A model generated the notes under the pieces. It saw only the letters and a program-made list of their open reading frames with translations. It did not search any database and was not told where the DNA came from. Shown in pieces: positions 8,190 through 62,331 of a stretch of DNA of 64,000 nt. The stretch is from Ochrobactrum sp. CGA5 (GTDB taxonomy: Bacteria > Pseudomonadota > Alphaproteobacteria > Rhizobiales > Rhizobiaceae). The DNA is taken from NCBI RefSeq assembly GCF_006345815.1, contig NZ_VCIG01000038.1:310001-374000 (forward strand), written 5' to 3'. Each line of letters starts with the position of its first letter. The first letter of the stretch is position 1. Position numbers and translations under genes: made by a program.

Positions 8190-8354
8190 GGTGACAACAT
8201 ATAAATTGTACCTATTTCTAAGTCAATTATAGAGTCAATTCGTCGCTATCTGGTGACAATCATCTGCATGGGCGGATTTGTGGGCAAAATTGTCATTTGC
8301 CTCGGCTGCCTTCCAGTTCCCAATTGGCCAACTAGCAATGAATGGACAGAGCCA
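8190..8354. promoter_or_regulatory. Divergent promoter region with direct repeat
   Basis: This AT-rich intergenic stretch separates the leftward MocR gene and the rightward DUF1127 gene. AGTCAATT occurs twice (8221-8228 and 8233-8240), 12 bases apart, about one helical turn. MocR regulators commonly bind direct repeats, so this is a candidate operator by inference only. Confidence 0.35.
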
Positions 8355-8642
8355 ATGTTCTACTTTAGACCGCAGACCGAGACAATAGATACAATTCTTC
8401 CGGTGCCTGTGGCAGATAGGGTCACAGACTTGCCAAAAGCATTGCAGCTCAACCTGACGGAGGCGTCCCAGCCGAAAGTTGGATTCGTGCGGCAGGTGCT
8501 GGATTGGCTCTCTTATCGAATGATGCTTCGGCGCACCCGGATCGCACTAAGTGAGCTGACAGACGATCAGTTACGCGACATCGGACTACAGCGCGACGAA
8601 GCTGAGCGCGAAGCGCGCAAGGTGCGCTTTCATCTTCGCTGA
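8355..8642 (+). CDS. DUF1127 domain protein (95 aa)
   Basis: The C-terminal half matches the DUF1127 (YjiS-like) pattern, an Arg-rich helix with LSELTDDQLRDIGL at about residues 66-79. The N-terminal 45 residues are not recognised. The frame opens at 8253, but the ATG at 8355 gives a normal family size and removes a Cys-rich, unlikely leader. DUF1127 proteins are small, often stress-induced and in some cases RNA-binding; no specific role can be claimed here. It is followed by a strong stem-loop. A second, shorter DUF1127 gene lies at 59894-60040. Confidence 0.7.
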   Translation: MFYFRPQTETIDTILPVPVADRVTDLPKALQLNLTEASQPKVGFVRQVLDWLSYRMMLRRTRIALSELTDDQLRDIGLQRDEAEREARKVRFHLR

Positions 8643-59626: not shown

Positions 59627-59705
59627 GGGCCATTCCCTTATCGCCTTTGCTGGATGCCTTCAATGGAGAAGGCTCATCACTAAGGGGAATCGTGCCGGAA
59701 AAAGA

Positions 59706-59745
59706 AATGGCATCCGTCGCGGGAGGAGGAGCGACGGATGCCATT
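59706..59745 (-). ncRNA. Cuckoo/CcsR-like sRNA hairpin 4 (terminator-like)
   Basis: A perfect 15-bp stem (59706-59720 with 59731-59745) encloses a 10-base loop that reads TCCTCCTCCC on the minus strand. It is followed leftward by TTTCTTTTTCC, so it probably also ends the transcript. It is the most stable of four similar hairpins. Confidence 0.82.
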
Positions 59746-59788
59746 ATAATAAGACCGGCGTTGGGAGGAGGAGAACCGGTCTTGTTAT
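59746..59788 (-). ncRNA. Cuckoo/CcsR-like sRNA hairpin 3
   Basis: The stem of 59746-59758 with 59776-59788 has 12 of 13 positions paired (8 bp uninterrupted next to the loop). The loop carries CCTCCTCCC (minus strand, complement of 59763-59771). Confidence 0.78.
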
Positions 59789-59820
59789 CGCAAAACCTGG
59801 GAGGAGGGTGGCTTTGCGAT
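59787..59820 (-). ncRNA. Cuckoo/CcsR-like sRNA hairpin 2
   Basis: The 8-bp stem ATCGCAAA/TTTGCGAT (59787-59794 with 59813-59820) has a possible inner C-C/G-G extension. The loop carries CCTCCTCCC (minus strand, complement of 59799-59807). Confidence 0.78.
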
Positions 59821-59822
59821 GA

Positions 59823-59856
59823 ACCAAGCCTGGTGGGAGGAGGAGCCAGACTCGGT
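59823..59856 (-). ncRNA. Cuckoo/CcsR-like sRNA hairpin 1
   Basis: The 11-bp stem (59823-59833 with 59846-59856) pairs fully only as minus-strand RNA, where two mismatches become G-U wobbles. The loop carries CCTCCTCCC (complement of 59835-59843). It is the first hairpin after the DUF1127 stop. Confidence 0.78.
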
Positions 59857-59893
59857 GAAACCCGTATCGGGAGAAACTGCGGGACTCGTTAAA

Positions 59894-60040
59894 TTAGCGA
59901 GCCTTGGTCTGGCGAGCCACGAACGGAATGTCCGCGCGGGAGATGCCAAGATCGTTCAGCTCACGGGTAGAGAGCTGGCTGAGTTCATTGACGGTGTCGC
60001 GATAACGGCGCCAGTTGTTGTAAGAGCGGAGGAGGTTCAT
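59894..60040 (-). CDS. Small DUF1127 protein (48 aa) leading the sRNA array
   Basis: The ATG at 60040 opens a 48-codon frame ending TAA at 59894. The product starts MNLLRSYNNWRRYRDT, continues VNELSQLSTRELNDLGISRADI and ends RQTKAR. This is a complete DUF1127 protein of the short type, strongly basic. AAGGAA lies 6 bases upstream of the ATG. In Rhodobacter sphaeroides the same type of gene (CcaF1) precedes the CcsR1-4 small RNAs and its product binds RNA, so an equivalent role is likely here. A heat-shock-type promoter could not be confirmed by eye. Confidence 0.9.
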   Translation of the reverse strand: MNLLRSYNNWRRYRDTVNELSQLSTRELNDLGISRADIPFVARQTKAR

Positions 60041-60315
60041 CTTGCTATTCCTTCATCGTTGAGGAACTGGAGTTCTGTTCAATTCATCTCGTTTGTTGTC
60101 CATGATATAAGCTATTGTTTTCGCAGGTTGCAGACCCGAGTTTGCATAGCTGCTGTGCGGGTCCTGCACGACACGTTAAATCGATTAGACTGGCGGGGCA
60201 CAAAATTGCCGCAAAGCGATCTGATCCCACTCTTTGCCGTCGGTATAGTTTCCTATATGTTCTCAAACGCTTACGGTTGCGATACCGACAACTGACAGAA
60301 TGACCAGGAGCTAAT

Positions 60316-61446
60316 TTGTCATTTTCCATTTCTGTTGAACGCCTGATCGAGAGATGGCAACGGGACGGTCTGATCGATGTGGAAACCGCATCGAAACTCA
60401 ATGCCGACCTTGAGAAGCGTGCTTCTGTTTTTAGCCTTGGTTCCGTACTGGCCACGCTTGGCGGGCTGCTTCTCGGCGCAGCGGTTATCATGCTGGTTGC
60501 TGCGAACTGGCAGGAAATGCCACGCCTCATGCGGATCGGCCTCATATTCGTTCTGATATGGGTGAGTTATCTCGGCGGAGCATGGCGGCAATCTCGTGGT
60601 GACAAGATGTTGCCGGCGGCACTCTATATTGTAGGTGCAGCGTCATTCGGGGCCGGGCTGGCACTTGTGGGGCAAATGTATCATCTGTCCGGCGATATTC
60701 ATTCCGCCGCAATCTATTGGTCTGTCGGCGTTCTGGTTTCGGCCTTTCTTTTACGCGCACCGGTACTGGCGGCTTTCGGTGCCGGCGTTGCCTGCTTTTA
60801 TCTTTCGACCTACGTATTTGATACGTCGTCCTATGACGATTTGAGCTATCGGTGGATCGGTCCGCTGCTTTTGTTGTTTGGTGCTGGGGCGGCCTTGTTC
60901 ACGCGCTCGCGACATGCCGCACATCTATGGGCGATGTTTTCCATCGGCTGGGCTTTGCTCATCTATGCGGAGCATGAAAGCAATACGGTGCTGTTCCTTA
61001 TGCTGATGGTGGGAATCGGCCTGATACTGGCTGACGGCTTTGCCCATGACACAGTGCAACGATTGACTCGCTTTGCTCGTCCGCTCGCCGCTTACGGCCT
61101 GGCTCTCGCGCTGCTGGCGCTTGTCACGCTTCAGGTCAACCAGGTGTTTTCCTATTCTGGCGACACAGCAAATCTGGATAAGGACACTCTATATAGTATC
61201 TTTACACTGGCGCTTGCGATCGGAGCTATTGCTGTAGCCGGTCGAAACAATGGTGGCCTACGCTCTATCGCCTATGCTGCGTTTTCGTTTCAGGTTCTCT
61301 ATTTGGCTTTCGAGACGGTTGGCACCATGATCGGAACATCCGGCTTCTTTTTGACTGCGGGCATTCTCGTGCTGCTGCTTGCTGCTTTTGTGAGGCGCAT
61401 GGAAAATCGCTTCGGAAGGAAAAGCAGCATGGAGTCTCGCCCATGA
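60316..61446 (+). CDS. DUF2157 polytopic membrane protein
   Basis: The 376-residue product has a soluble N-terminus with RLIERWQRDGLIDVETASKL (residues 9-28), the DUF2157 start pattern. About ten hydrophobic segments follow from residue 40. Function is unknown. The start is a TTG at 60316 with AGGAG six bases upstream. It overlaps the GDYxxLxY gene by 4 bases (ATGA), a pairing common for this family. Confidence 0.85.
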   Translation: MSFSISVERLIERWQRDGLIDVETASKLNADLEKRASVFSLGSVLATLGGLLLGAAVIMLVAANWQEMPRLMRIGLIFVLIWVSYLGGAWRQSRGDKMLPAALYIVGAASFGAGLALVGQMYHLSGDIHSAAIYWSVGVLVSAFLLRAPVLAAFGAGVACFYLSTYVFDTSSYDDLSYRWIGPLLLLFGAGAALFTRSRHAAHLWAMFSIGWALLIYAEHESNTVLFLMLMVGIGLILADGFAHDTVQRLTRFARPLAAYGLALALLALVTLQVNQVFSYSGDTANLDKDTLYSIFTLALAIGAIAVAGRNNGGLRSIAYAAFSFQVLYLAFETVGTMIGTSGFFLTAGILVLLLAAFVRRMENRFGRKSSMESRP

Positions 61447-62012
61447 CTATTCGACTCAAATGGCTTTATGTCGGAGCGACCGTCACGGCGTTGCTGCAAA
61501 CCGGCATTCTTTATGCAGGTATAGAAAGACGCGCTTCTGTTTTGCGCTCGGGTACGGAACTGACGCTTCAGACGGAACCTTTCGACCCACGCGATCTGAT
61601 GCGTGGTGATTACGTTGTACTGCGTTACGCTATTTCTGCTCTGTCACGAAAGGACATACAAGGCGAGCGTCCTGCCGGTTCGCGAACCGTCTATGTGGCG
61701 GTGAAGCCCGATGCGACTGGGATAGCGCGTTTCTCACGCGCGTCATTCGTTCCGATTTTACGGCTCGACGCGGGCGAAGTGCAGATTCGCGGCGAGGCCG
61801 CCTATTCCATCTCCGATGATCCAGAATCAAGTGTTCGTCTCAATTTCGGCATTGAACGATATTATATACCCGAGGGACAGGGGCGTGCGATCGAAGACAG
61901 ACAGAGGGAGCAGCGGATCACTGCCGTAGTGGCTGTCGATCCGAACGGAATGCCGGTCATTAAAGCCTTGCAGGAAGATGGACGGCAGCTTTATCAGGAG
62001 CCACTTTACTGA
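61443..62012 (+). CDS. GDYXXLXY domain-containing protein
   Basis: The 189-residue product has an N-terminal hydrophobic segment (about residues 6-24, membrane anchor or uncleaved signal) and the defining motif DPRDLMRGDYVVLRYAIS near residue 50. This domain is nearly always encoded beside DUF2157 proteins, as here with a 4-base overlap, suggesting a membrane complex of unknown function. Confidence 0.88.
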   Translation: MTIRLKWLYVGATVTALLQTGILYAGIERRASVLRSGTELTLQTEPFDPRDLMRGDYVVLRYAISALSRKDIQGERPAGSRTVYVAVKPDATGIARFSRASFVPILRLDAGEVQIRGEAAYSISDDPESSVRLNFGIERYYIPEGQGRAIEDRQREQRITAVVAVDPNGMPVIKALQEDGRQLYQEPLY

Positions 62013-62248: not shown

Positions 62249-62331
62249 GCGGATGTGGCGAAATTGGTAGACGCACCAGATTTAGGTTCTGGCGGGAGAC
62301 CGTGGGGGTTCGAGTCCCTCCATCCGCACCA
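62249..62331 (+). tRNA. tRNA-Leu (anticodon UAG)
   Basis: The acceptor arms GCGGATG (62249-62255) and CATCCGC (62321-62327) pair. The anticodon stem CCAGA/TCTGG holds loop TTTAGGT, giving anticodon TAG at 62283-62285. A long variable arm (GCGGGAGACCGT) and T-loop GGTTCGAGTCC identify a leucine tRNA, and CCA is encoded at 62329-62331. No integrated element adjoins it. Confidence 0.95.

What the first reader, a model, noticed from the sequence alone, without database searches (positions are those of the whole stretch)
59706..60040. Four tandem CCUCCUCCC-loop hairpins behind a 48-aa DUF1127 gene: a CcsR/cuckoo small-RNA system
On the minus strand a tiny DUF1127 gene is followed by four hairpins whose loops all contain CCTCCTCCC (complements at 59835, 59799, 59763, 59721; spacing 36, 36, 42). 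The stems differ in sequence while the loops are identical, so the loop is what is conserved. Two stem mismatches in the first hairpin become G-U pairs only in minus-strand RNA, and a T-rich tract follows the last hairpin. Both point to minus-strand transcription. Rhodobacter CcsR1-4 with CcaF1 has the same layout: a DUF1127 gene plus four such RNAs, stress-induced and targeting C1/pyruvate metabolism. The loop mimics the anti-Shine-Dalgarno sequence, so each RNA could titrate or mask ribosome sites of many mRNAs. An unremarked version in a Brucella-like chromosome would be a stress regulator worth studying.
Basis: partly seen in the sequence, partly recalled or inferred. Interest (0 to 1): 0.88.

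Follow-up and report, generated by a model that had tools for sequence, protein, structure and literature searches.

The report
Cuckoo small RNAs behind DUF1127 gene
Behind a tiny DUF1127 gene in a Brucella/Ochrobactrum-type bacterium lie four RNA hairpins of a known small-RNA family that can block ribosome start sites, and comparison suggests that one known regulator (VtlR/LsrB) switches the gene and the RNAs on together.

Summary
Four minus-strand hairpins with CCUCCUCCC loops follow a 48-aa DUF1127 gene, and all four stems covary in relatives. Hairpins 2-4 match Rfam ar14 (94.2 bits, cut-off 58.8), the ar14/NfeR1/"cuckoo" family, already known in Brucellaceae. The DUF1127-cuckoo pairing is in print as the "CIN1 locus". 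So it is a new member of a known kind. It resembles Rhodobacter ccaF1-CcsR, but CcsR1 stays below its cut-off (35.2 of 65.3) and no RpoH-type promoter was found. Instead the published VtlR/LsrB box lies upstream at a steady distance, in 63 of 77 distinct upstream regions (3.9 expected). In this genome three of four short DUF1127 genes carry it, as do both stand-alone ar14 copies above the cut-off. The two DUF1127-linked ar14 copies have no box of their own. Best reading: VtlR/LsrB drives one transcript that encodes a small protein and ends in anti-Shine-Dalgarno RNA modules, probably silencing transporter mRNAs. Co-transcription, processing and targets are inferred; no RNA data were available. 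The added value is the VtlR/LsrB link: some VtlR-activated DUF1127 genes may be double-function transcripts.

The parts
60144..60156 (-). VtlR/LsrB-type box A-N3-CA-N3-ATGC (reverse complement of GCAT-N3-TG-N3-T), ACAGCAGCTATGC
   Evidence: Exact match to the published consensus (PMC8844928, PMC7486931, passages); same position in relatives. No binding data for this site.
60128..60133 (-). -35-like CTGCAA
   Evidence: Partly conserved in alignment A2; 18 nt before TATAT. The sigma-70 scanner found no site here. Inferred.
60105..60109 (-). -10-like TATAT, invariant in 19 aligned upstream regions
   Evidence: start of transcription near 60097 is inferred
59894..60040 (-). 48-aa DUF1127 gene (short class)
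   Evidence: PF06568 64.3 bits
59823..59856 (-). Hairpin 1 (loop CCUCCUCCC at 59843-59835); outside the three-hairpin ar14 model
   Evidence: Fold; 6 of 10 pairs with change on both sides
59787..59820 (-). Hairpin 2 (loop at 59807-59799)
   Evidence: ar14 match 59824-59705; 6 of 11 pairs with change on both sides
59751..59783 (-). Hairpin 3 (loop at 59771-59763)
   Evidence: ar14 match; 3 of 9 pairs with change on both sides
59706..59745 (-). Hairpin 4 (loop at 59729-59721), 15-bp stem; with the following T-rich tract probably the intrinsic terminator
   Evidence: ar14 match; 3 of 15 pairs with change on both sides, 98.5% of cells paired
59699..59705 (-). TCTTTTT tract after hairpin 4
   Evidence: Sequence. 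The terminator scanner did not list it; its loop limit is 3-8 and this loop is 10.

Best explanation
A VtlR/LsrB-activated sigma-70-type promoter transcribes one minus-strand RNA. Its 5' part encodes a 48-aa DUF1127 protein. Its 3' end is a four-hairpin ar14/cuckoo module whose last hairpin is the terminator. The module is probably freed by ribonuclease cleavage in the linkers, perhaps helped by the DUF1127 protein as CcaF1 helps CcsR maturation. It then acts in trans: the CCUCCUCCC loops pair with GGGAGGAG-type Shine-Dalgarno sequences, above all of transporter binding-protein mRNAs, and block their translation. Shown here: anatomy, covariation, family membership, conserved box, conserved gene order. 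Inferred: co-transcription, processing, VtlR/LsrB binding at this site, targets.
For: ar14 94.2 bits. Covariation: 18 of 45 pairs change on both sides, shuffle mean 9.3, 0 of 500 shuffles reach it; slid controls give 0-4. Downstream of DUF1127 in 80 relatives, 79 have at least 2 and 76 at least 3 CCTCC clusters within 300 nt; shuffles give 23% and 4.7% of sequences; the other strand has none in 72 of 80 and one in 8 of 80. Among listed hits of the 61-genome searches (lists cut at 150 rows each), 54 of 150 ar14 lie within 200 nt downstream of a DUF1127, in 36 genomes. Published VtlR/LsrB box in 63 of 77 distinct upstream regions (window plus 80 relatives; 3.9 expected), and in 18 of 29 family-wide DUF1127 loci (1.7 expected). 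Own genome: box at 3 of 6 DUF1127 hits, all of the short class; at both stand-alone ar14 copies above the cut-off (L003, L004) and at L005 (39.6 bits, below it), not at L006 (32.6 bits); none directly before the two DUF1127-linked ar14 copies. Positive control: an ar15 (AbcR-type) promoter here carries the 15-mer printed for Brucella VtlR. Literature: VtlR directly activates bab1_0914, bab2_0512 and atu1667 (PMC7486931); LsrB activates NfeR1, whose anti-SD motifs silence mRNAs (PMC10746234). Of 23 own-genome ORFs with GGGAGGAG before ATG, 8 are solute-binding proteins, against 2 of 40 scanned control ORFs (Fisher p = 0.003, or 0.026 leaving out control contigs C1, C2 and C5).
Against: No transcript data. 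Relatives are not independent, so counts overstate. With one mismatch allowed the 15-mer is no commoner in the genome than its reversed control (12 against 10). The exact box is missing in 14 of 81 DUF1127 upstream regions and in 11 of 29 family-wide loci; 6 of those 29 show no CCTCC in the 340 nt searched downstream. Of 150 listed family DUF1127 hits only 45 have a listed ar14 within 200 nt downstream. In this genome the third box-bearing short DUF1127 gene has no hairpins behind it, and a fourth short one (45 aa) has neither box nor hairpins. The sigma-70 scan found no promoter. The target test is small, unadjusted and its controls are uneven. In B. abortus, single and combined loss of the four VtlR targets is said to leave virulence unchanged (PMC12595884, passage citing earlier work); whether those deletions removed the hairpins I could not see. 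Recent work gives small DUF1127 proteins a protein-binding role (PhoR; PMC12501420), so the protein may have nothing to do with the RNAs.
Confidence: 0.72

Rival explanations
1. It is a CcsR/CcaF1 system as in Rhodobacter: an RpoH-driven operon of a DUF1127 RNA-binding protein with four stress sRNAs that it helps to mature.
For: Same order of parts and four anti-SD hairpins; weak CcsR1 match over hairpins 2-3 (35.2 bits). In R. sphaeroides the operon has an RpoHI/RpoHII promoter and RNase E processing (PMC10253847, passages).
Against: CcsR1 is under its cut-off (65.3). No CTTG-N15-19-CYTAT in 81 upstream regions. A VtlR/LsrB box is there instead.
Confidence: 0.12
2. The hairpins act only in cis: a strong terminator and mRNA stabiliser for the DUF1127 gene, with no trans-acting RNA.
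For: Hairpin 4 plus T-rich tract looks like a terminator.
Against: Four hairpins are not needed to terminate. The loop sequence stays while stems change, which a terminator does not require. Stand-alone ar14 copies with their own box exist in the same genome, and the anti-SD loops of NfeR1 are tested seeds (PMC10746234).
Confidence: 0.08
3. The hairpin RNA is an independent sRNA with its own promoter that merely sits behind DUF1127.
For: NfeR1 and other ar14 copies are stand-alone (PMC10746234). In some genera ar14 lies upstream of DUF1127 instead (19 of 150 listed hits).
Against: No exact VtlR/LsrB box directly before the DUF1127-linked copies: 0 of 2 in this genome and 0 of 14 family loci of this class (read together by hand), against 4 of 5 family loci with no listed DUF1127 on their contig. 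But of 10 family loci where ar14 lies upstream of DUF1127 only 2 have the box, so absence of the box does not prove absence of a promoter.
Confidence: 0.08

Closest known systems
alpha-r14 / cuckoo RNA family (Rfam RF02344; NfeR1 = Smr14C2 of Sinorhizobium meliloti)
   Same: Three of the four hairpins match the model above its cut-off; anti-SD loops with variable stems; several copies per genome; VtlR/LsrB-type box.
   Different: Here a fourth hairpin precedes the model and the module lies behind a DUF1127 gene; NfeR1 has its own LsrB promoter. The NtrC site of nfeR1 is reported as not evident in Brucella (PMC10746234).
CIN1 locus (short DUF1127 gene with CcsR-like RNAs; Reinkensmeier and Giegerich 2015, cited in PMC10253847)
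   Same: The same gene-RNA pairing.
   Different: The 2015 paper is not held; whether it lists this locus is not known to me.
Rhodobacter sphaeroides ccaF1-CcsR1-4
   Same: DUF1127 gene followed by four CCUCCUCCC RNAs and a terminator.
   Different: RpoHI/HII promoter there, VtlR/LsrB box here; Rfam CcsR1 below cut-off here.
VtlR-activated small DUF1127 genes (B. abortus bab1_0914, bab2_0512; A. tumefaciens atu1667)
   Same: Short DUF1127 gene with the same box.
   Different: The parts I read of PMC7486931 mention no 3' anti-SD hairpins and leave open whether atu1667 acts as protein or RNA. I did not examine the atu1667 locus itself. That the window gene is the bab1_0914 orthologue is inference.

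Membership tests
ar14 / cuckoo RNA (RF02344) | Covariance model score above the curated cut-off | tested here: met
   94.2 bits, cut-off 58.8, model 1-123
ar14 / cuckoo RNA (RF02344) | Adjacent hairpins with CCUCCUCCC in every loop and variable stems | tested here: met
ar14 / cuckoo RNA (RF02344) | Expressed as a small RNA | not testable with these tools
   No RNA data held
CcsR RNAs (RF02791) | Covariance model score above the curated cut-off | tested here: not met
   35.2 bits, cut-off 65.3
CcsR/CcaF1 operon | DUF1127 gene directly upstream on the same strand | tested here: met
CcsR/CcaF1 operon | RpoHI/RpoHII promoter | tested here: not met
   No CTTG-N15-19-CYTAT in the upstream 160 nt of the window gene or 80 relatives; consensus search only
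CIN1 locus | Short DUF1127 gene together with CcsR-like/cuckoo RNAs | tested here: met
   definition taken from a passage of PMC10253847
VtlR/LsrB regulon | Box GCAT-N3-TG-N3-T upstream of the promoter | tested here: met
   60156-60144 exact; conserved
VtlR/LsrB regulon | Binding by, and expression dependent on, VtlR/LsrB | not testable with these tools
   Shown for other DUF1127 genes and for NfeR1 in the literature only

The most novel reading that the evidence does not exclude
The VtlR/LsrB regulon is at heart an anti-Shine-Dalgarno RNA regulon: most of its DUF1127 'protein' targets (two of the three box-bearing ones in this genome) are double-function transcripts whose 3' cuckoo modules act with the stand-alone ar14 copies and AbcR. 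The RNA part, not only the protein, then carries much of the VtlR/LsrB phenotype across Brucellaceae and Rhizobiaceae.
Probability: 0.37. Interest if true: 0.62.

Novelty: new member of a known kind. Interest (0 to 1): 0.42.

Why it matters
It joins two lines of work that, in the passages I read, are not connected: VtlR/LsrB-activated small DUF1127 genes, whose function is disputed, and LsrB-activated cuckoo/ar14 RNAs. If DUF1127 mRNAs end in such RNAs, then experiments that delete, complement or overexpress 'the protein' may have changed or omitted an sRNA. The question left open in PMC7486931, whether atu1667 works as a protein or an RNA, becomes directly testable wherever such hairpins follow the gene.

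Tried and rejected
Fifth CCTCCTCC in codons 3-5 of the DUF1127 ORF: looked like the masked C-rich codons of an S. meliloti DUF1127 leader (PMC12218461), but only L013-L015 of the 80 relatives carry it with the window. Rejected as a feature.

RpoH promoter: no match to the pattern. The sigma-70 scan found no site on either strand, and the terminator scan found only one plus-strand site.

The one-mismatch 15-mer is no commoner in the genome than its reversed control (12 against 10). I therefore rely on the exact published 13-position box and its fixed position. Still, 5 of those 12 sites lie at the window and C35 DUF1127 genes, the C9 short DUF1127 gene, the C6 ar14 and an ar15.

Target test: 30 GGGAGGAG-N3-9-ATG sites (3 with the pattern reversed); 23 gave ORFs of 60 aa or more and all 23 were scanned. 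Control AAAGGAGA-N3-9-ATG: 52 sites (5 reversed), so the excess over the reversed pattern only says that these are ribosome sites. Of the 52, 50 were looked at (30, 20), giving 43 ORFs, 40 scanned. L214 and L217 were left out for want of room, and L212 duplicates L211. Of the first 30 control sites, 15 lie on contigs C1, C2 and C5, which look plasmid-like.

Rows dropped: L015 was left out of alignment A1 because its aligned stretch is identical to that of L013. Alignment A2 used 18 of the 80 relatives plus the window.

L006 (32.6 bits, one anti-SD hairpin) has no box and is probably not a full ar14.

Full report
WHAT IS THERE. The window is G000:C31:310001-374000 of a 4.6 Mb genome. Its DUF1127 protein is 100% identical over 48 residues to those in Brucella tritici, B. 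cytisi and B. pseudintermedia records, so the organism is of the Ochrobactrum-type Brucella group (inference). On the minus strand lie a 48-aa DUF1127 gene (60040-59894) and then four hairpins at 59856-59823, 59820-59787, 59783-59751 and 59745-59706. Each loop holds CCUCCUCCC. A TCTTTTT tract follows hairpin 4, and after 72 more bases starts a 467-aa GIDA-family gene that I take for trmFO (the name trmFO is recalled). The fold is far stronger than shuffles on the minus strand (z -11.4) and less so on the plus strand (z -5.8).

FAMILY. Rfam ar14 (RF02344) covers hairpins 2-4 at 94.2 bits, cut-off 58.8. CcsR1 (RF02791) reaches only 35.2 of 65.3. Hairpin 1 lies outside the three-hairpin model. 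In an alignment of 27 loci (window plus L013-L039 without L015), 96.3% of cells pair. Of 45 pairs, 18 change on both sides (shuffle mean 9.3, 0 of 500 shuffles as high), against 0 to 4 for slid partners. Hairpin 1 alone has 6 of 10 such pairs. Loops keep CCTCC in 27, 27, 26 and 26 of 27. So the loop is held while the stem drifts with compensation, as described for this family with three and four hairpins (PMC3927594, section 2.7 read).

DISTRIBUTION. ar14 was found in 60 of 61 family genomes at E 0.001 (over the cut-off in 56 of 61) and in 0 of 14 control genomes. Of the 150 ar14 hits listed there, 54, in 36 genomes, lie within 200 nt downstream of a listed DUF1127 hit on the same strand, 16 more lie 201-1500 nt downstream, and 19 lie upstream of one within 1.5 kb; 48 have no listed DUF1127 on their contig. 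Seen from the other side, 45 of 150 listed DUF1127 hits have a listed ar14 within 200 nt downstream. Both lists were cut at 150 rows, so these are lower bounds. Of 272 relatives of the window's DUF1127 protein the best 80 were kept. Of these, 79 have at least two and 76 at least three CCTCC clusters within 300 nt downstream (shuffles: 23% and 4.7%). The one with a single cluster is L073. On the other strand 72 have none and 8 have one. It is commoner at family level: 6 of 29 loci show no CCTCC in the 340 nt searched downstream.

PROMOTER. The published VtlR/LsrB box GCAT-N3-TG-N3-T (PMC8844928 and PMC7486931, passages) is matched exactly, in reverse complement, at 60156-60144. It occurs in 67 of 81 upstream regions (window plus 80 relatives), or 63 of 77 distinct ones (3.9 expected from shuffles), starting 95 to 116 nt before the start codon in all 67. 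In alignment A2, 19 sequences share an invariant CAGC-ATGCA core and an invariant TATAT at 60109-60105. With a start near 60097 (inferred) the box would lie at about -59 to -47, close to the -61 to -49 given for the S. meliloti abcR1 promoter (PMC8844928). Across 29 family-wide DUF1127 loci 18 have the box within 200 nt (1.7 expected).

OWN GENOME. Of six DUF1127 hits, four are short (45 to 48 aa by the most likely start). Three of these (window, C35, C9) have the exact box; the fourth (C41:447526, 45 aa) and the two long ones do not. A fourth Brucella DUF1127 gene without VtlR motif is likewise reported (PMC12595884). Of the three with box, two (window, C35) have ar14 behind them and one (C9) does not. 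Of the stand-alone ar14 hits, L003 and L004 (above the cut-off) and L005 (39.6 bits, two anti-SD loops) have the box starting 58, 57 and 51 nt before the match, and L006 (32.6 bits) has none. The two DUF1127-linked ar14 copies have none directly before them (the slices end 10 nt inside the match, so its ar14 offsets are 10 too large). Reading together, by hand, for the 29 family ar14 loci: 0 of 14 loci downstream of a DUF1127 have a box within 150 nt, 4 of 5 loci with no listed DUF1127 on their contig have one, and 2 of 10 loci upstream of a DUF1127 have one. As a positive control, an ar15 (AbcR-type) gene in this genome has upstream the very 15-mer printed for VtlR in PMC12595884.

MECHANISM. 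VtlR directly activates bab1_0914, bab2_0512 and atu1667 (PMC7486931). LsrB activates NfeR1, an ar14 RNA whose three anti-SD motifs act redundantly and which silences ntrBC mRNA (PMC10746234). CcsR RNAs are cut by RNase E from the ccaF1 3' UTR with help of the DUF1127 protein CcaF1 (PMC10253847, PMC8625941). From these I infer one VtlR/LsrB-driven transcript, cleavage, and translation block by the loops. In the own genome, GGGAGGAG 3-9 nt before ATG occurs 30 times against 3 for the reversed pattern; a different strong SD shows the same kind of excess (52 against 5), so this alone means little. Of 23 GGGAGGAG ORFs of at least 60 aa, 8 are solute-binding proteins (L163, L165, L176, L178, L181, L182, L186, L192), against 2 of 40 scanned control ORFs (L224, L241); p = 0.003, or 0.026 leaving out control contigs C1, C2 and C5 (unadjusted). 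That fits the transporter targets reported for NfeR1 and AbcR.

KNOWN OR NEW. ar14 is described for Brucellaceae (PMC7143759), and the DUF1127 association is named CIN1 locus (PMC10253847). So it is a new member of a known kind. What I did not find in the library is the joint statement that VtlR/LsrB-driven DUF1127 genes carry cuckoo RNAs at their 3' end. Paper searches gave no paper saying so in the listings and passages I read. The 2015 cuckoo paper and the 2021 CcaF1 paper are not held. The 2015 CcsR paper, the 2018 B. abortus DUF1127 paper and the 2020 A. tumefaciens DUF1127 paper were not asked for. So it may be in print.

PAPERS SEEN. PMC12218461: outline with abstract, passages, sections 11 and 12. 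PMC10746234: passages, section 5. PMC7486931: outline with abstract, part 2 of 3 of Results, passages. PMC3927594: passages, section 2.7. PMC12595884, PMC7143759, PMC12501420, PMC10253847, PMC8625941, PMC8844928, PMC7717549, PMC11975290: passages only. The RpoH patterns used were written from recall; PMC8844928 gives a similar consensus for S. meliloti RpoH1.

Noticed in passing
window 8253-8642 (+): A second, longer DUF1127 protein (ORF of 129 aa; hit at 8499-8606) in the same window, with no exact VtlR/LsrB box in the 250 nt before the hit and no CCTCC in the 300 nt after it.
   Followed up: partly
window 62249-62331 (+): tRNA-Leu gene between the GDYXXLXY gene and a 485-aa ORF that looks like trigger factor (name by eye).
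   Followed up: no
window 60316-62009 (+): DUF2157 membrane protein and GDYXXLXY protein genes side by side, divergent from the DUF1127 unit.
   Followed up: no
L154 1501-1740: Third box-bearing short DUF1127 gene of the genome, with no anti-SD hairpins behind it; a stand-alone ar14 lies 2.7 kb downstream.
   Followed up: partly
L004/L005 (G000:C6:67372-68172): Two divergent ar14 copies about 0.6 kb apart, each with its own box; the second has two anti-SD loops and scores under the cut-off (39.6 bits).
   Followed up: partly
L006 (G000:C50:94306-94416): One anti-SD hairpin followed by a strong hairpin without the motif, 32.6 bits; perhaps a decayed or single-module cuckoo RNA.
   Followed up: no
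L037, L039, L043 downstream of DUF1127: Module number and loops drift: L043 has six CCTCC clusters, L037 has lost CCTCC in loop 3 and L039 in loop 4.
   Followed up: partly
L067 and L086 (record titled Bacillus subtilis SK6B4), L020 (titled Xylophilus sp. MAG): Brucellaceae-type DUF1127 loci in records titled as other organisms; probably mislabelled or mixed assemblies.
   Followed up: no
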